From NCBI GenBank assembly GCA_000296795.1, contig BAFH01000002.1, forward strand, positions 466,686 to 530,685: a stretch of 64,000 nucleotides of DNA, read 5' to 3'. The stretch's first letter is position 1; every line of letters begins with the position of its first letter. This DNA is from Candidatus Jettenia caeni. Lineage in GTDB: Bacteria; Planctomycetota; Brocadiia; Brocadiales; Brocadiaceae. The notes beneath the pieces were generated by a model. The model saw only the letters and a program-made list of their open reading frames with translations, was not told where the DNA came from and did not search any database. Positions 13,396-47,496 of the stretch are shown here, piece by piece. The position numbers were made by a program, and so were the translations under genes.

Positions 13396-14521
13396 ATATC
13401 TGATATACTAAGAGAATAAGGGAAAGAGTACCATAAATTATTTTGTAGGATAAGTATATCAGTATGAAGCAACAGAAACGGGACGTAAAGAAACTAGCAG
13501 GAACAGATAAAAGGCCGCTCCAAGAACAGAAAAAGAAGAAATCAAAGAAGGACTACCGGGTAAGAAACTGGTCAGAGTATACAGAGGCATTAAGACAAAG
13601 AGGGTCTCTTGATGTATGGATAGATGAGGGGGTACAAGAGAAATGGAATGCAGAGCCAACGGGCCAAAGAGGGTCTCCCCCTACGTATAGTGATCTGGCC
13701 ATAACATCAACGCTTCAGTTGGGTATCGTATTTCATCAAAGACTTCGTCAAACAGAAGGATTAGTCAAATCACTGTTTCGGCTCATGAATATCCCTCTGA
13801 AGGTTCCTGATTATTCAACCCTGTCTCGAAGAGGTGAAACAGTGGGAATTTCTTTAGCGAAAGAGAAGAAAGAGAATCTGGTATTAGTCCTTGATAGCAG
13901 TGGGTTAAAGGTCTATGGGGAAGGGGAATGGAAGGTAAGACAGCATGGATATACCAAGAGAAGAACATGGAGAAAGATTCATTTGTCCATTACTCCTGAT
14001 GGAGAGATAAGAGCACAAGAGCTTACCGAGAATAGTACTGGTGATTCAGAGGTAGTAGATAAGCTTCTAAGCCAGGAAGAGTCAAGGATTGATACCTTTG
14101 CCGGTGATGGCTCCTATGATAAGAGGAAGGTCTATGAGAGTTGTAAGAGAAGAGGGATTCTCAGAATACTTATTCCTCCGAGGAAGGATGCAAAGATATG
14201 GCAGCATGGCAACTGCAGTACAGAGCCACATGTCCGAGATGAGACGATAAGGCATATCAGAAGAACTTCCCTAAGACAGTGGAAAGAGCGTGTTGGTTAC
14301 CACGTCCGCTCTCTGGTTGAGAATGCGATATTTCGATTCAAAACCATCTTTGGCGATAGGCTTTATGCCAGAAATCTTGCTCAACAAAGAACAGAAGTAG
14401 GTATCAAGGCATCTGTTTTAAACCGTATGATGAAATTAGGAATGCCGGAAAGTTATGCGATCTCATAAATTGCATACTACAGGGAAAAACTGCTTTTTTA
14501 TCGGATTTGTGCAACAAAGCC
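13371..14521 (+). mobile_element. IS5-family, IS903-group insertion sequence (copy 1)
   Basis: 1151 bp with terminal inverted repeats GGCTTTGTTGCACAAA at both ends (16 bp perfect, continuing imperfectly as gCCGGATAAA / tCCGATAAA). The ends and the 9-bp duplication CTGGGAAAC match the IS903 group. The internal transposase is intact, and its protein is identical to that of the copy at 39021-40171. It interrupts the M23 peptidase gene. Confidence 0.95.
13464..14468 (+). CDS. IS5/IS903-type DDE transposase
   Basis: 334 residues, intact. Likely DDE residues are D144 (LVLDSSGLKVYGEGEWKV), D215 (FAGDGSYDKR) and E286 (RSLVENAIFRFKTIFGDRL). The pattern VPDYSTLSRR and RRTWRKIHL is typical of the IS903 group. 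A basic N-terminus of about 30 residues is expected for end binding. The protein is identical to that of the second copy on the other strand, so the two elements moved recently. Confidence 0.95.
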   Translation: MKQQKRDVKKLAGTDKRPLQEQKKKKSKKDYRVRNWSEYTEALRQRGSLDVWIDEGVQEKWNAEPTGQRGSPPTYSDLAITSTLQLGIVFHQRLRQTEGLVKSLFRLMNIPLKVPDYSTLSRRGETVGISLAKEKKENLVLVLDSSGLKVYGEGEWKVRQHGYTKRRTWRKIHLSITPDGEIRAQELTENSTGDSEVVDKLLSQEESRIDTFAGDGSYDKRKVYESCKRRGILRILIPPRKDAKIWQHGNCSTEPHVRDETIRHIRRTSLRQWKERVGYHVRSLVENAIFRFKTIFGDRLYARNLAQQRTEVGIKASVLNRMMKLGMPESYAIS

Positions 14522-39020: not shown

Positions 39021-40171
39021 GGCTTTGTTGCACAAATCCGATAAAAAAGCAGTTTTTCCCTGTAGTATGCAATTTATGAGATCGCATAACTTTCCGGCAT
39101 TCCTAATTTCATCATACGGTTTAAAACAGATGCCTTGATACCTACTTCTGTTCTTTGTTGAGCAAGATTTCTGGCATAAAGCCTATCGCCAAAGATGGTT
39201 TTGAATCGAAATATCGCATTCTCAACCAGAGAGCGGACGTGGTAACCAACACGCTCTTTCCACTGTCTTAGGGAAGTTCTTCTGATATGCCTTATCGTCT
39301 CATCTCGGACATGTGGCTCTGTACTGCAGTTGCCATGCTGCCATATCTTTGCATCCTTCCTCGGAGGAATAAGTATTCTGAGAATCCCTCTTCTCTTACA
39401 ACTCTCATAGACCTTCCTCTTATCATAGGAGCCATCACCGGCAAAGGTATCAATCCTTGACTCTTCCTGGCTTAGAAGCTTATCTACTACCTCTGAATCA
39501 CCAGTACTATTCTCGGTAAGCTCTTGTGCTCTTATCTCTCCATCAGGAGTAATGGACAAATGAATCTTTCTCCATGTTCTTCTCTTGGTATATCCATGCT
39601 GTCTTACCTTCCATTCCCCTTCCCCATAGACCTTTAACCCACTGCTATCAAGGACTAATACCAGATTCTCTTTCTTCTCTTTCGCTAAAGAAATTCCCAC
39701 TGTTTCACCTCTTCGAGACAGGGTTGAATAATCAGGAACCTTCAGAGGGATATTCATGAGCCGAAACAGTGATTTGACTAATCCTTCTGTTTGACGAAGT
39801 CTTTGATGAAATACGATACCCAACTGAAGCGTTGATGTTATGGCCAGATCACTATACGTAGGGGGAGACCCTCTTTGGCCCGTTGGCTCTGCATTCCATT
39901 TCTCTTGTACCCCCTCATCTATCCATACATCAAGAGACCCTCTTTGTCTTAATGCCTCTGTATACTCTGACCAGTTTCTTACCCGGTAGTCCTTCTTTGA
40001 TTTCTTCTTTTTCTGTTCTTGGAGCGGCCTTTTATCTGTTCCTGCTAGTTTCTTTACGTCCCGTTTCTGTTGCTTCATACTGATATACTTATCCTACAAA
40101 ATAATTTATGGTACTCTTTCCCTTATTCTCTTAGTATATCAGATATTTATCCGGCTTTGTGCAACAAAGCC
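39021..40171 (-). mobile_element. IS5-family, IS903-group insertion sequence (copy 2, inverted)
   Basis: 1151 bp, same length and ends as copy 1 at 13371-14521 and the same transposase, in opposite orientation. The 9 bp before it (GATTATAAC, 39012-39020) and after it (GTTGATTGC, 40172-40180) do not match, so no target duplication is visible. It cuts the 3' end of the toxin gene on its right. Confidence 0.93.
39074..40078 (-). CDS. IS5/IS903-type DDE transposase (copy 2)
   Basis: 334 residues, identical in sequence to the protein at 13464-14468, with the same candidate catalytic residues D144, D215 and E286. Identity over the full length points to recent transposition or gene conversion. Both copies keep an intact frame. 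Confidence 0.95.
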   Translation of the reverse strand: MKQQKRDVKKLAGTDKRPLQEQKKKKSKKDYRVRNWSEYTEALRQRGSLDVWIDEGVQEKWNAEPTGQRGSPPTYSDLAITSTLQLGIVFHQRLRQTEGLVKSLFRLMNIPLKVPDYSTLSRRGETVGISLAKEKKENLVLVLDSSGLKVYGEGEWKVRQHGYTKRRTWRKIHLSITPDGEIRAQELTENSTGDSEVVDKLLSQEESRIDTFAGDGSYDKRKVYESCKRRGILRILIPPRKDAKIWQHGNCSTEPHVRDETIRHIRRTSLRQWKERVGYHVRSLVENAIFRFKTIFGDRLYARNLAQQRTEVGIKASVLNRMMKLGMPESYAIS

Positions 40172-43355: not shown

Positions 43356-43586
43356 CTATCTTAGCCTTTTAATAAAAACATGAATCTCTTCCTCCGCCTC
43401 TTCGATGCCCAATAGCTCATTCCCTGTGGTATTACACCAGGAAACAATATCCTTCTTTATGCCTTCATCTGTGGCAATAATCTCAAGCACCTTACCTATT
43501 TCAATATCTTTGATTTTATTTGCCGTCTTAAAGATAGGCATAGGGCACATAAGCCCAAAGCAATCTAATGTTTCATCTGCTTTCAT
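43356..43586 (-). CDS. tusA: TusA-family sulfur carrier protein
   Basis: 76 residues. ETLDCFGLMCPMPIFKTANK holds the conserved CPxP motif; the Cys carries persulfide sulfur. EIIATDEGIKKDIVSWCNTT and LLGIEEAEEEIHVFIKR complete the IF3-like fold. It passes sulfur between a desulfurase and acceptors. It lies 65 bp downstream of the IscU/NifU gene, so a role with the NifS-like protein is likely. Confidence 0.9.
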   Translation of the reverse strand: MKADETLDCFGLMCPMPIFKTANKIKDIEIGKVLEIIATDEGIKKDIVSWCNTTGNELLGIEEAEEEIHVFIKRLR

Positions 43587-43651: not shown

Positions 43652-44086
43652 TCAAGCCTTCTCGTGCTCGTGGTGTTCATCGTGTGGAAGCTCCTTCTTC
43701 TTCTCAAGGCCTTTACCCGTAGTCTTCTTGAGATAATCATCAATGGCTGCCTCGATGGCCTCTTCGGCAAGCACAGAGCAATGCATTTTAGCCGGGGGTA
43801 ATCCTCCTAACGCCTCTGCTACTGCCTTGTTGGTAAGTTTTAAGGCCTCATCTAAGGTCTTTCCCTTAATCATTTCTGTAGAAATGCTACTGGTAGCAAT
43901 GGCTGCACCACAGCCGAACGTCTTGAACTTTACATCGACAATTACATTATCCTTAACCTTGATAGACATCTTCATAATATCGCCACAAGCAGGATTTCCA
44001 ACCTCTCCCACGCCATCGGCATCAGAGAAATCTCCCACATTCCGGGGATTTGCAAAATGATCCATAACCTTTGGACTGTATTGCAT
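43652..44086 (-). CDS. nifU: Fe-S cluster scaffold protein (IscU/NifU N-domain type)
   Basis: 144 residues. The three cluster cysteines are present in GNPACGDIMKMSI, KTFGCGAAIATSS and AKMHCSVLAEEAI; the Asp after the first Cys is also conserved. A His/Lys-rich tail (ELPHDEHHEHEKA) is an extra that could bind metal. The protein builds [2Fe-2S] or [4Fe-4S] clusters using sulfur from a desulfurase, whose gene lies 22 bp upstream. Ribosome binding site AAGGAG. Confidence 0.92.
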   Translation of the reverse strand: MQYSPKVMDHFANPRNVGDFSDADGVGEVGNPACGDIMKMSIKVKDNVIVDVKFKTFGCGAAIATSSISTEMIKGKTLDEALKLTNKAVAEALGGLPPAKMHCSVLAEEAIEAAIDDYLKKTTGKGLEKKKELPHDEHHEHEKA

Positions 44087-44108: not shown

Positions 44109-45284
44109 CTAATTTTTCATCTGTTTCTGACTATACAAAGGAGACATTTGCCTTAAACGCTCGACAATAGATGGTAGTTTTTCCAAAACACAGGCAATAT
44201 CGTCCTCGGTATTGTTGATTCCCAAACTAAAAAGCACTGTCCCCTGAGCAAGCGCAGCATCGACACCTGTAGCCATGATAACGTGCGACGCCTTAAGCGA
44301 CCGTGAGGTACATGCAGAACCACTGGAGATGGCAATCCCCTGCATATCCAGAAATAATAAAATAGATTCACCCTCAATATACTCTATGCATAAACTGAGG
44401 TTTCCGGGCATACGATTCGTTGCATGACCGTTAACGTAAACATGGCTAATATTTTTTAAAATACCCTCTCTTAATAGATCCCTCAGCTTCTGAACTTTAT
44501 TTACCCTTTCTGACATTTCTTGTTTTGCCAGTTCGGCTGCTTTACCCATAGCAACAATACCGATACTATTTTCTGTTCCTGACCTGCGCCCTCCCTCCTG
44601 TACTCCACCTTCTATGAGAGGAAGTATCCTTACTCCTTCCCTGAGGTAAAGCGCCCCAACTCCCGTTGGACCGTTAAATTGATTTGCCGACATACTGAGG
44701 GCGTCAATGTGAGCATCCTTAACATCAATGGGTATATTTCCCACTGCAGCAACGGCATCTGTATGAAAAAGAACGCCGTTCTCTTTTGTTATAGCTCCAA
44801 TCTCCTTAACTGGCTCGATAGTCCCAATCTCACCATTTGCATACATAATAGATACCAATGTTGTTGTAGGGGTAATGGCTTTTTTGATATCAGCGGGATT
44901 TACCATTCCATATTTATCAACGGGTAAGTAAGTAACTATATATCCCGATTTTTCCAGAGATTTTAAGGGATTAAGCACAGAAAAATGCTCAATTTGTGAT
45001 GTAATAACGTGGTTCCCCTTTTTTTTATGAGCAGTCAGTAGGCCTTTTAAAGCAAAGTTATTGGCCTCAGTACCGCTGGAGGTAAATATAATCTCGTTGG
45101 GTTTTGCATTGATAAGATTTGCTACTTGCCCTCTTGCCTCCTGTAGAGCCTCATTGGTAACCCTTCCGAATTGATGTAAATTGGAGGGGTTCCCAAATCC
45201 CTTGTGTAAGAATTGGGTAATAGTTTCAATTACTTTGGAATGCATCGGTGTACCCGAGGCATTATCCATATATATTTTTCCCAT
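44109..45284 (-). CDS. NifS/IscS-like cysteine desulfurase lacking the usual PLP lysine
   Basis: 391 residues, full length, with MDNASGTPMHSKV at the start, SSGTEANNFALKG, SQIEHFSVL, FHTDAVAAVG and the active-site Cys loop SSGSACTSRSLKASHV. Where IscS has GHKIYGPKG (the PLP lysine), this protein reads ANQFNGPTG (residues 200-208), so His and Lys are Asn and Gln. The Gln after the HxDA motif is Ala. The gene keeps its place next to iscU and tusA genes. Either it belongs to a group that uses a different chemistry or partner, or it cannot bind PLP in the classic way. Confidence 0.85.
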   Translation of the reverse strand: MGKIYMDNASGTPMHSKVIETITQFLHKGFGNPSNLHQFGRVTNEALQEARGQVANLINAKPNEIIFTSSGTEANNFALKGLLTAHKKKGNHVITSQIEHFSVLNPLKSLEKSGYIVTYLPVDKYGMVNPADIKKAITPTTTLVSIMYANGEIGTIEPVKEIGAITKENGVLFHTDAVAAVGNIPIDVKDAHIDALSMSANQFNGPTGVGALYLREGVRILPLIEGGVQEGGRRSGTENSIGIVAMGKAAELAKQEMSERVNKVQKLRDLLREGILKNISHVYVNGHATNRMPGNLSLCIEYIEGESILLFLDMQGIAISSGSACTSRSLKASHVIMATGVDAALAQGTVLFSLGINNTEDDIACVLEKLPSIVERLRQMSPLYSQKQMKN

Positions 45285-45309: not shown

Positions 45310-47496
45310 TTACCGTATCTTTTCTAACTTTGCATATGCTAACATAAGATTCTTTATTCCACCAACATTAAAATTGATCTTGGCACATATCTTATCTTTA
45401 CTACCGGAAACCTCAAGTACCCTTCCAATGCCAAAAACAGGGTGTCTAACAATTTCTCCGCCTGAAAGGGGTGCCAAATTTTCTTTTAATGAATCATCAG
45501 GGACAGTTATATCGTCTATATGAAACGCTGTATCATACGACGAATTGCTTTTATTGTAAATATCATCAGCGTAATTATAATTTGTTTTATCAATATGAAT
45601 TACAATTTCTTTTGGAATCTCATCCAAAAATCTTGACGGGATACAAAAATTCATTTGTCCATATCGCATCCGCCTCTTGGTATGGGTAAGGAAGAGTTCA
45701 CTCATTGCCCGGGTAATTCCTACGTAACAGAGCCTTCGCTCTTCTTCAATCTTATCATCTGAATCCGTAGATTCCGCATGTGGCAATAACTTTTCTTCCA
45801 TACCGGTAATAAAAACAACGGGAAATTCCAATCCTTTAGCGGTATGGAATGTCATGAGGGTCACCGCCCGGGTATCTTCTTGTAGTTCATCAACATCAGA
45901 AACCAGGGCTACTTCTTCTAAAAATCCCTGTAAGGTACCTTCAGAATAGTTCATGTCATATTCGTGAGCAGCATTAACAAGTTCTTCAACGTTCGCAATA
46001 CGGTCTTTTGATTCTTTTCCTCCAGATTCTCTCAGGAACTCTATATACCTTGTCTCTTGAATGACCTGTTTGATGATATTTTCTACAGGCGACTTTGGTA
46101 GTTGTTGTAAATGTAAAATAAGTTCAGTGAATTTTTTTATGGATAAAGTGCCTTGCCCCTTAATCTCTGGTATTGCATTGACTTGCTGTAAGGCATAGAA
46201 AAGACTGGTGTTTTGTGCTGCCGCCCAGTCTTCAAGTTTTTTTATGGTAGTGTTTCCTATGCCTCGTGTGGGTGTATTAATCGTTCGTTCCAGCGCTACT
46301 CTGTCCTGAGGGTTAATACAGAGCCTGAGATAGGACAATATATCTTTAATCTCTTTTCTTTGGTAAAATTCTACGCCGCCAATGATCCTATACGGGATCC
46401 CGTGATTTTTTAAAGAGATCTCAAGAACGCGGGATTGAGCGTTGGTGCGATAGAATAATGCAATATTTGAGTATTTTACTCCTTTTGTGCTAAGCATCCT
46501 AATTGATTTTGCAATTTCTTCCGCCTCCCCGTGTTCATCCTCGCAATGGATTACCTTGATTTTCTCACCTTCTACATTTTCTGTCCAAAGTCTCTTTTGT
46601 TTTCTGTATCTGTTTTGCTGGATTACGCTGGAGGCTGCATGGAGAATACGCTTTGTAGAACGATAGTTTTTCTCTAGCAGCACAACTTTAGCGTCCGGAT
46701 AATCTTTCTCAAAATCCATAATATTTCTAATGTCCGCTCCACGCCATCCATAAATGGATTGATCGGGGTCGCCTGTTACGCAGATGTTTCTGTATTTACT
46801 GGCGAGCATTCGTGTGATGGTATACTGGGTGTAATTAGTATCTTGATATTCGTCTACGAGAACGAACTTAAATTTTTCTTGGTACATTTCTAGAATATCG
46901 GTGTGTGTCTTAAATAGCTCTATAGTTTTGATGAGTAGATCATCAAAATCAAGGGCGTTGTTAGTCTTAAGAATTGTATGGTATTTTGCATAAACTTGAG
47001 CGACAATACGATTATAATATCCTGATGCGGTGGACGTAAAGGTTTCGGGATTTATGAGTTTATTTTTAGCATGACTGATAGTGCTTGCTATCGTACGGGG
47101 TTTCCATTGAGCAGTGTCAAACTGGAGTTCTGCCATGATGGATTTAATTTGGTTCAGTTGATCAGTGGTATCGTAAATACTAAAGTCCTTTGAGTATCCC
47201 AGTCTTTCGATATTATTTCTAAGTATCCGTGAACACATTTTATGAAACGTGGATATCCACAGTCCTTTTTGTGATAGAAATTGTTTTATGCGTTCACACA
47301 TTTCATCGGCTGCTTTATTTGTGAAAGTGATGGCTAATATATTATATGGATTTATACCTTGTGATATCAGGTAACCAATGCGACGTGTAATTATACGGGT
47401 TTTGCCGCTACCGGCCCCTGCTATAACGAGAAGTGGACCTTCCATATGAGTGACAGCTTCACGCTGACTTTCAGTAATATCTTTTAATAAGGGCAT
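45310..47496 (-). CDS. pcrA: UvrD/PcrA-type superfamily 1 DNA helicase
   Basis: 728 residues. Walker A is AGAGSGKTRIITRRI near residue 30; further motifs are FVLVDEYQDTNYTQY, GDPDQSIYGWRGAD, LEKNYRSTKRIL, VTLMTFHTAKGLEFPVVFI and RRLCYVGITRAM. The C-terminal end (about 680-728, EIVRHPVFGIGRVLEVSG) is the Tudor-like domain of PcrA/UvrD. It unwinds DNA in repair and replication restart. It begins 5 bp after the methyltransferase gene ends. Confidence 0.94.
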   Translation of the reverse strand: MPLLKDITESQREAVTHMEGPLLVIAGAGSGKTRIITRRIGYLISQGINPYNILAITFTNKAADEMCERIKQFLSQKGLWISTFHKMCSRILRNNIERLGYSKDFSIYDTTDQLNQIKSIMAELQFDTAQWKPRTIASTISHAKNKLINPETFTSTASGYYNRIVAQVYAKYHTILKTNNALDFDDLLIKTIELFKTHTDILEMYQEKFKFVLVDEYQDTNYTQYTITRMLASKYRNICVTGDPDQSIYGWRGADIRNIMDFEKDYPDAKVVLLEKNYRSTKRILHAASSVIQQNRYRKQKRLWTENVEGEKIKVIHCEDEHGEAEEIAKSIRMLSTKGVKYSNIALFYRTNAQSRVLEISLKNHGIPYRIIGGVEFYQRKEIKDILSYLRLCINPQDRVALERTINTPTRGIGNTTIKKLEDWAAAQNTSLFYALQQVNAIPEIKGQGTLSIKKFTELILHLQQLPKSPVENIIKQVIQETRYIEFLRESGGKESKDRIANVEELVNAAHEYDMNYSEGTLQGFLEEVALVSDVDELQEDTRAVTLMTFHTAKGLEFPVVFITGMEEKLLPHAESTDSDDKIEEERRLCYVGITRAMSELFLTHTKRRMRYGQMNFCIPSRFLDEIPKEIVIHIDKTNYNYADDIYNKSNSSYDTAFHIDDITVPDDSLKENLAPLSGGEIVRHPVFGIGRVLEVSGSKDKICAKINFNVGGIKNLMLAYAKLEKIR

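What the first reader, a model, noticed from the sequence alone, without database searches (positions are those of the whole stretch)
44109..45284. NifS-like protein without the PLP-binding lysine in an iscU-tusA operon
The conserved GHKxxGPKG becomes ANQFNGPTG, so both His and the Schiff-base Lys are missing, and the conserved Gln after HxDA is Ala. The active-site Cys loop, the histidine after SQIE and the overall length are kept, so the gene is under selection. It may use another lysine, act as a sulfur relay without desulfurase activity, or need a partner.
Basis: partly seen in the sequence, partly recalled or inferred. Interest (0 to 1): 0.68.

Follow-up and report, generated by a model that had tools for sequence, protein, structure and literature searches.

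The report
Lysine-less IscS in anammox bacteria
A gene that automatic annotation would call a cysteine desulfurase has, throughout one family of anammox bacteria, lost the lysine and most other residues needed to take sulfur from cysteine, yet it is kept under strong selection beside its usual partners, so it probably helps build iron-sulfur clusters without making the sulfur itself.

Summary
The ORF at 44109-45284 (-) is a full-length IscS/NifS-fold protein with Asn201-Gln202 where E. coli IscS has His205-Lys206, and Ala179 in place of Gln183. Tools show more. The substrate-carboxylate arginine (Arg354 -> Leu351), Asn155 (-> Gly151) and the ATT motif are also gone. The active-site Cys325, His100, Asp176 and the PLP-phosphate threonines are kept.

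It is not a recent mutation. All 28 Brocadiaceae orthologs analysed have A/N/Q/L at these sites, with median dN/dS 0.06. Every other desulfurase checked in the same genomes keeps the full catalytic set. The gene usually sits in iscS-iscU-tusA, downstream of pcrA. The genome also has canonical NifU-NifS and no SufB/D.

The kind is known. Archaeoglobus fulgidus IscS (Asp199, PDB 4EB5/4HVK) lacks desulfurase activity and gives a cysteine ligand to the IscU cluster. A tree places that archaeal Asn-Asp clade apart from this bacterial Asn-Gln clade, so the loss probably happened more than once.

Best reading: a desulfurase-dead IscS that docks IscU and presents Cys325 as cluster ligand or sulfur relay, with sulfur coming from sulfide or TusA. 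Chemistry is untested. New variant of a known kind.

The parts
44109..45284 (-). Lysine-less IscS/NifS-fold protein, 391 aa (P0001)
   Evidence: Pfam Aminotran_5 267 bits; fails NCBIfam NifS TIGR03402 (516 < 531) but passes the subfamily model NF002806 'IscS subfamily cysteine desulfurase' (318 > 304); AlphaFold2 pLDDT 89.5, TM 0.91-0.96 to IscS/NFS1/A. fulgidus IscS
44679..44684 (-). Asn201-Gln202 codons (AAT CAA) in place of His205-Lys206
   Evidence: 28/28 in Brocadiaceae
44748..44750 (-). Ala179 in place of Gln183 (hydrogen bond to the PLP phenolate oxygen)
   Evidence: Ala in 28/28 Brocadiaceae and 11/14 archaeal relatives, Gln in 10/10 canonical
44832..44834 (-). Gly151 in place of Asn155 (active-site pocket)
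   Evidence: Gly in 26/28 Brocadiaceae and 13/14 archaeal relatives, Asn in 10/10 canonical
44232..44234 (-). Leu351 in place of Arg354 (binds the substrate carboxylate)
   Evidence: Leu in 28/28, Arg in 10/10 canonical; role of Arg354 from PMC9978102
44310..44312 (-). Cys325 (= E. coli Cys328), the persulfide/cluster-ligand cysteine, kept
   Evidence: 28/28
44757..44759 (-). Asp176 (= Asp180, PLP N1 contact), kept
   Evidence: 28/28
44985..44987 (-). His100 (= His104, stacks on the PLP ring), kept
   Evidence: 28/28
43652..44086 (-). iscU: NifU_N/IscU-type scaffold, 144 aa, with Cys34, Asp36, Cys59, Cys103
   Evidence: TIGR03419 210 > 188; Pfam NifU_N; ligands conserved in 23/23; 22 bases from iscS
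43356..43586 (-). tusA: sulfur carrier, 76 aa, Cys14 of CPMP kept
   Evidence: Pfam TusA 80 bits; Cys14 in 21/21
45310..47496 (-). UvrD/PcrA-type helicase gene upstream, 25 bases before iscS; neighbour, not assumed part of the function
   Evidence: order also kept in the more distant Brocadiales family f4

Best explanation
The protein is an IscS-derived partner of the IscU scaffold that has lost cysteine desulfurase chemistry. Shown by sequence: it keeps the IscS fold, most of the PLP pocket (Thr72, His100, Asp176, Ser199, Thr237), the mobile loop with Cys325, and a conserved partner IscU with all cluster ligands. It has lost the residues that form the Schiff base, tune the cofactor and hold the substrate. 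Inferred: it docks IscU as a dimer and offers Cys325 to the nascent cluster, as a ligand or as a persulfide relay, while the sulfur comes from outside (sulfide, or a persulfide carried by the neighbouring TusA). PLP, if bound, is non-covalent and mainly structural. Canonical NifS, where present, and a SufS-like desulfurase take sulfur from cysteine for other needs.
For: Joint loss of K206, H205, Q183, R354 and (26/28) N155 with D180, H104, T76, T243 and C328 unchanged in 28/28 Brocadiaceae. Every clear desulfurase paralog in nine of these genomes keeps N155/Q183/H205/K206 and, where the match covers it, R354, including the SufS-like type at 31% identity. In E. coli IscS, changes at Lys206, Gln183, Asp180, His104 or Cys328 cost most of the activity, and Arg354 holds the cysteine carboxylate (PMC9978102). 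Purifying selection, dN/dS 0.062. iscU adjacency with intact Cys/Asp/Cys/Cys. Precedent: A. fulgidus IscS (K->D) has no desulfurase activity and gives a cysteine ligand to the [2Fe-2S] cluster on IscU (cited in PMC7585200); it shares Asn for His205, Ala for Gln183 and Leu for Arg354. In E. coli, H2S can feed IscU without IscS under anaerobic conditions (PMC13015791). No SufB/D in this or 18 other Brocadiaceae genomes.
Against: No biochemistry exists for the bacterial Asn-Gln group. E. coli K206A is reported to keep a very low rate, so the lysine alone is not absolute proof of inactivity (PMC9978102). iscS and iscU are unlinked in some species, for example the complete Ca. Brocadia pituitae genome. 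TusA adjacency could reflect ordinary sulfur trafficking. One MAG (Ca. B. carolinensis, L060) has a frameshift near codon 88, perhaps a homopolymer error.
Confidence: 0.62

Rival explanations
1. Persulfide relay fed by TusA: TusA-SSH (or another persulfide) loads Cys325, and the lysine-less IscS hands the sulfur on to IscU, that is, the usual IscS-to-TusA flow runs backwards. A specific form of the best explanation.
For: tusA follows iscU in most Brocadiaceae and in the two f2 loci, and lies upstream of iscS on the same strand in about 12 of 17 archaeal Asn-Asp loci; none of the fully canonical loci looked at had it. TusA Cys14 is invariant. E. coli IscS binds TusA and IscU with the same Cys328 loop (PMC2854127).
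Against: The E. coli IscS residues that contact TusA are mostly not conserved here (W45->R, R220->E, R237->G), though they vary in canonical enzymes too. The genome has a second TusA. Nothing shows the direction of flow.
Confidence: 0.25
2. Still an active PLP enzyme: another lysine (for example K331 on the Cys loop), or substrate-only aldimine chemistry, replaces Lys206.
For: PLP-pocket residues His100, Asp176, Thr72, Thr237 are invariant. E. coli K206A retains slow turnover (PMC9978102). K331 is invariant in the 28 Brocadiaceae and in six more distant Brocadiales, but Glu or Gln in the archaeal clade.
Against: Substrate-binding Arg354 and Asn155, and Gln183, are lost together with the lysine. 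K331 also occurs in 2 of 10 canonical enzymes. A. fulgidus, the same kind of protein, is reported inactive (PMC7585200).
Confidence: 0.12
3. A regulatory or mixed-dimer subunit of the canonical NifS that modulates or redirects its sulfur.
For: Canonical NifS is encoded in the same genome; IscS enzymes are dimers whose Cys loop reaches the partner bound to the other subunit (PMC2854127).
Against: Two draft genomes rated 99-100% complete (G006, G019) and one at 84% have this gene and its IscU but no NifU/NifS found. NifS is only about 46% identical.
Confidence: 0.1
4. A decaying pseudogene.
For: Catalytic residues lost; one MAG frameshifted (L060).
Against: dN/dS 0.062, 168 of 391 sites invariant across 28 species-level genomes, kept in essentially every Brocadiaceae genome searched.
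Confidence: 0.01

Closest known systems
Archaeoglobus fulgidus IscS (PDB 4EB5, 4EB7, 4HVK; D199K mutant 4R5F)
   Same: IscS fold; His-Lys replaced (Asn-Asp), Gln183->Ala, Arg354->Leu, ATT motif lost; active-site Cys kept; pairs with IscU
   Different: 44-46% identity in the aligned fold; Asp, not Gln, at the lysine position; Asn155 kept; archaeal clade separate from the bacterial one
Methanosarcina acetivorans IscS1
   Same: Reported to lack the catalytic lysine and other PLP-binding residues while keeping the Cys loop, next to iscU (PMC7585200)
   Different: Archaeal, not fetched or aligned here; beside genes of unknown function, function untested
MIS (minimal Isc-like system, MisS-MisU)
   Same: Two-gene IscS-IscU pair (definition as reported in PMC12442378 and PMC11559095)
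   Different: MisS is defined as a cysteine desulfurase; this protein lacks the residues for that
E. coli IscS / canonical NifS
   Same: Fold, Cys328 loop, H104, D180; IscU as partner
   Different: K206, H205, Q183, N155, R354 and ATT all replaced

Membership tests
Cysteine desulfurase, NifS/IscS (type I) | PLP Schiff-base lysine (Lys206) | tested here: not met
   Gln202 in 28/28 Brocadiaceae
Cysteine desulfurase, NifS/IscS (type I) | Substrate and cofactor contacts Gln183, His205, Arg354, Asn155 | tested here: not met
   Ala, Asn, Leu, Gly
Cysteine desulfurase, NifS/IscS (type I) | Active-site cysteine on the SSGSAC loop | tested here: met
   Cys325, 28/28
Cysteine desulfurase, NifS/IscS (type I) | Curated model score | tested here: inconclusive
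   Below cut-off for TIGR03402 NifS (516 < 531) and TIGR02006 IscS (403 < 643), above it for the looser subfamily NF002806 (318 > 304)
Cysteine desulfurase, NifS/IscS (type I) | Releases alanine and persulfide from L-cysteine | not testable with these tools
   needs purified protein
A. fulgidus-type lysine-less IscS | IscS fold with Cys loop, lysine replaced, encoded with IscU | tested here: met
A. fulgidus-type lysine-less IscS | Same clade as the archaeal Asn-Asp proteins | tested here: not met
   Separate clades. AU test of one lysine-less clade: p = 0.058 with the H205, K206, Q183 and R354 columns removed, p = 0.016 after removing 14 active-site columns and five long rows
A. fulgidus-type lysine-less IscS | Cysteine ligates the IscU cluster | not testable with these tools
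   needs a structure of the complex
MIS (MisS-MisU) | iscS-iscU pair lacking chaperone and ferredoxin genes in the locus | tested here: met
   neighbours are pcrA and tusA
MIS (MisS-MisU) | Clusters with MisS/MisU in a reference phylogeny | not tested
   the reference paper is not held

The most novel reading that the evidence does not exclude
Anammox bacteria run an iron-sulfur assembly line in which the 'desulfurase' is only a docking and relay subunit: sulfur arrives as sulfide or TusA-bound persulfide, and in some species, which lack SUF and apparently NIF, this is the only scaffold system left. The same conversion arose at least once more, independently, in archaea, with nearly the same set of substitutions.
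Probability: 0.3. Interest if true: 0.75.

Novelty: new variant of a known kind. Interest (0 to 1): 0.5.

Why it matters
Anammox metabolism depends on many iron-sulfur proteins, and no SufB/D was found in this family. If its conserved IscS is not a desulfurase, then where the cluster sulfur comes from is an open and directly testable question, and the name given by automatic annotation is misleading. Repeated conversion of IscS into a non-desulfurase that keeps its cysteine and its IscU partner would show that docking and cysteine presentation are separable from sulfur production. It also gives a sequence signature (K206, H205, Q183 and R354 lost, Cys328 kept) to find such proteins in other genomes.

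Tried and rejected
Recent mutation or sequencing error: rejected, fixed in the family. Pseudogene: rejected by dN/dS. Replacement lysine: eight lysines are invariant in Brocadiaceae; only K331 is set apart from the archaeal clade and most canonical sequences, and it also occurs in 2 of 10 canonical enzymes. Single origin with the A. fulgidus clade: not favoured, but this depends on few lysine-bearing sequences in the bacterial clade. Correlated loss of Lys with Arg, Gln and ATT on the tree: only 3 independent pairs, too few for significance. A degenerate ANQF.GP DNA pattern over 392 Planctomycetota genomes: hits in Brocadiaceae plus 14 scattered hits elsewhere, not far above the reversed-pattern control and not examined further. 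The ~600-base insert between iscS and iscU in Brocadia looks like a Uma2-type gene (judged from its reading frame, not scanned), not a conserved part. Searches centred on the Dehalococcoidia and Desulfohalobiaceae genomes were not possible. Garcia et al. 2022 is not in the library, and the three original A. fulgidus papers did not turn up in searches; A. fulgidus facts come from PMC7585200 and PDB titles.

Full report
What is there. The window lies in a Candidatus Jettenia-like anammox genome (97% protein identity to Ca. Jettenia ecosi at this gene; 4.09 Mb, 99.95% complete). On the minus strand the order is pcrA/uvrD (45310-47496), the IscS-like gene (44109-45284), iscU (43652-44086) and tusA (43356-43586), with gaps of 25, 22 and 65 bases and good ribosome-binding sites for iscS and iscU.

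Against E. coli IscS (from NC_000913.3) the protein has Asn201-Gln202 for His205-Lys206, Ala179 for Gln183, Gly151 for Asn155, Leu351 for Arg354, and ASGT where the conserved ATT lies. It keeps Thr72, Glu73, His100, Asp176, Ser199, Thr237 and Cys325. Published mutagenesis of E. coli IscS says Lys206, Gln183, Asp180, His104 and Cys328 are needed for activity, and that Arg354 holds the cysteine carboxylate (an R354K variant stays active) (PMC9978102). So the Schiff base, cofactor tuning and substrate binding are hit together, while cofactor stacking, the phosphate-side threonines and the sulfur-carrying cysteine are not.

It is a conserved subfamily. In 28 Brocadiaceae sequences N201, Q202, A179 and L351 are invariant, and Gly151 is found in 26. 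Median pairwise dN/dS is 0.062 over 91 pairs with dS 0.05-1.5. All 59 related genomes searched have a relative of the protein, and within Planctomycetota the ANQF.GP signature is concentrated in Brocadiaceae. More distant Brocadiales at 59-63% identity also have Asn-Gln or Ser-Gln, no Gln183 and no Arg354. Some Brocadiales genomes carry a second lysine-less paralog with other residues at the site (His-Thr, Gln-Pro, His-Ala; L105, L106, L107, L110).

Internal control. In nine Brocadiaceae genomes every other recognisable desulfurase (NifS, the formate-dehydrogenase fusion, and the SufS-like EF2568 type at about 31% identity) keeps N155, D180, Q183, H205 and K206, and C328 and R354 wherever the match covers them. 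The pattern is specific to this gene. The own genome encodes canonical NifU (TIGR02000, 392 > 273) and NifS (TIGR03402, 635 > 531) side by side, no SufB/D, and two NifU_N proteins only. None of 18 further Brocadiaceae genomes has SufB/D. Two drafts rated 99% and 100% complete (G006, G019), and one at 84% (G015), show only the IscU of this locus and no NifU or NifS. They are drafts, and nifU-nifS is one small locus, so absence is not proven.

Relatives outside. The closest archaeal relatives (about 50% identity; Hadarchaea, Bathyarchaeota, Methanoperedens, Methanothrix and others) read Ser-Ser-Asn-Asp, mostly with Ala for Gln183 and with Leu/Val/Ile for Arg354, and form one clade with A. fulgidus IscS. 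Dehalococcoidia, Desulfohalobiaceae, Troglogloeales and Krumholzibacteriota sequences are lysine-less too, with differing residues. Nitrospirae relatives at 57% identity keep His-Lys but have lost Gln183 and Arg354, perhaps an intermediate.

History. A maximum-likelihood tree of 55 proteins without the trait columns puts the archaeal Asn-Asp group (100/100) apart from a bacterial group (100/98) that holds the Brocadiales proteins together with lysine-bearing ones. The fewest changes of the lysine state is 3. Forcing all lysine-less proteins into one clade gives p-AU 0.058, and 0.016 after removing all active-site columns and five long rows. Independent loss is favoured, but sampling of lysine-bearing enzymes near the bacterial clade is thin.

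Partners. IscU beside the gene keeps Cys34, Asp36, Cys59 and Cys103 in 23 of 23 Brocadiaceae loci, and TusA keeps Cys14 in 21 of 21. tusA lies downstream in Brocadiaceae and upstream of iscS in about 12 of 17 archaeal loci; it was not seen beside the fully canonical loci examined. Linkage is not universal: in Ca. Brocadia pituitae iscS and iscU are about 217 kb apart. The E. coli TusA-contacting residues on IscS are mostly not kept, so the TusA link is suggestive only.

Structure. AlphaFold2 from a 23-sequence alignment gives pLDDT 89.5; the least certain segment is in the Cys loop (residues 326-328). Foldseek matches human NFS1, A. fulgidus IscS (4HVK, 4EB5, and the D199K mutant 4R5F) and E. 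coli IscS at TM 0.91-0.96. The fold does not tell active from inactive members.

Mechanism. The best analogue, A. fulgidus IscS, is reported to lack desulfurase activity because of the lysine substitution and to give a cysteine ligand to the [2Fe-2S] cluster on IscU (PMC7585200). In E. coli, H2S restores Fe-S assembly without IscS under anaerobic conditions, and needs IscU (PMC13015791). Together these make a desulfurase-independent docking and ligand role the most likely reading for an anaerobic anammox bacterium; a TusA-fed persulfide relay is the main variant. Shown: sequence losses, conservation, selection, synteny, fold. Inferred: absence of activity, docking to IscU, sulfur source.

Novelty. 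Lysine-less IscS is known in archaea. What this adds is a bacterial subfamily fixed across the anammox family, the coordinated loss of the substrate-binding arginine and asparagine, evidence for separate origins, its place in genomes without SUF, and the tusA linkage. No paper in the library was found that describes it in anammox bacteria.

Noticed in passing
L114:864-4283 (own genome C3:719363-722782): A 1139-aa fusion of a formate-dehydrogenase-like molybdopterin oxidoreductase with a complete canonical cysteine desulfurase at its C-terminus; open frames of 1136-1157 aa at the corresponding desulfurase match occur in other Brocadiales.
   Followed up: partly
L105, L106, L107, L110: A second lysine-less IscS paralog in other Brocadiales families (His-Thr, Gln-Pro or His-Ala at the site, LRPGTD/RRPGTD, SSPDL after the Cys), in one case (L107) next to an iscU.
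   Followed up: partly
L061, L062, L084 (Nitrospirae) and L075 (Coatesbacteria): IscS relatives with His-Lys or His-Arg but with Arg354 lost (and Gln183 lost in Nitrospirae): possible intermediates on the way to lysine loss.
   Followed up: partly
L208:2586-5451 and L209: A SufS-like desulfurase (TIGR01977) sits with a MoeB/ThiF-type E1 and an unassigned 225-aa protein; in G006 an Nfu-like 71-aa protein precedes them.
   Followed up: partly
own genome and 18 Brocadiaceae genomes: No SufB/SufD found by Pfam PF01458, although all 14 control genomes ring.
   Followed up: yes
L040, L041, L050: In several Brocadia relatives a Uma2-like gene is inserted between iscS and iscU.
   Followed up: no
L055 (Ca. 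Brocadia pituitae): Here the lysine-less iscS is separated from iscU and is followed by an MnmE/TrmE-like GTPase gene.
   Followed up: no
window 13464-14468 (+) and 39074-40078 (-): Two copies of the same 334-aa transposase-like ORF with identical translation in opposite orientation, about 25 kb apart.
   Followed up: no
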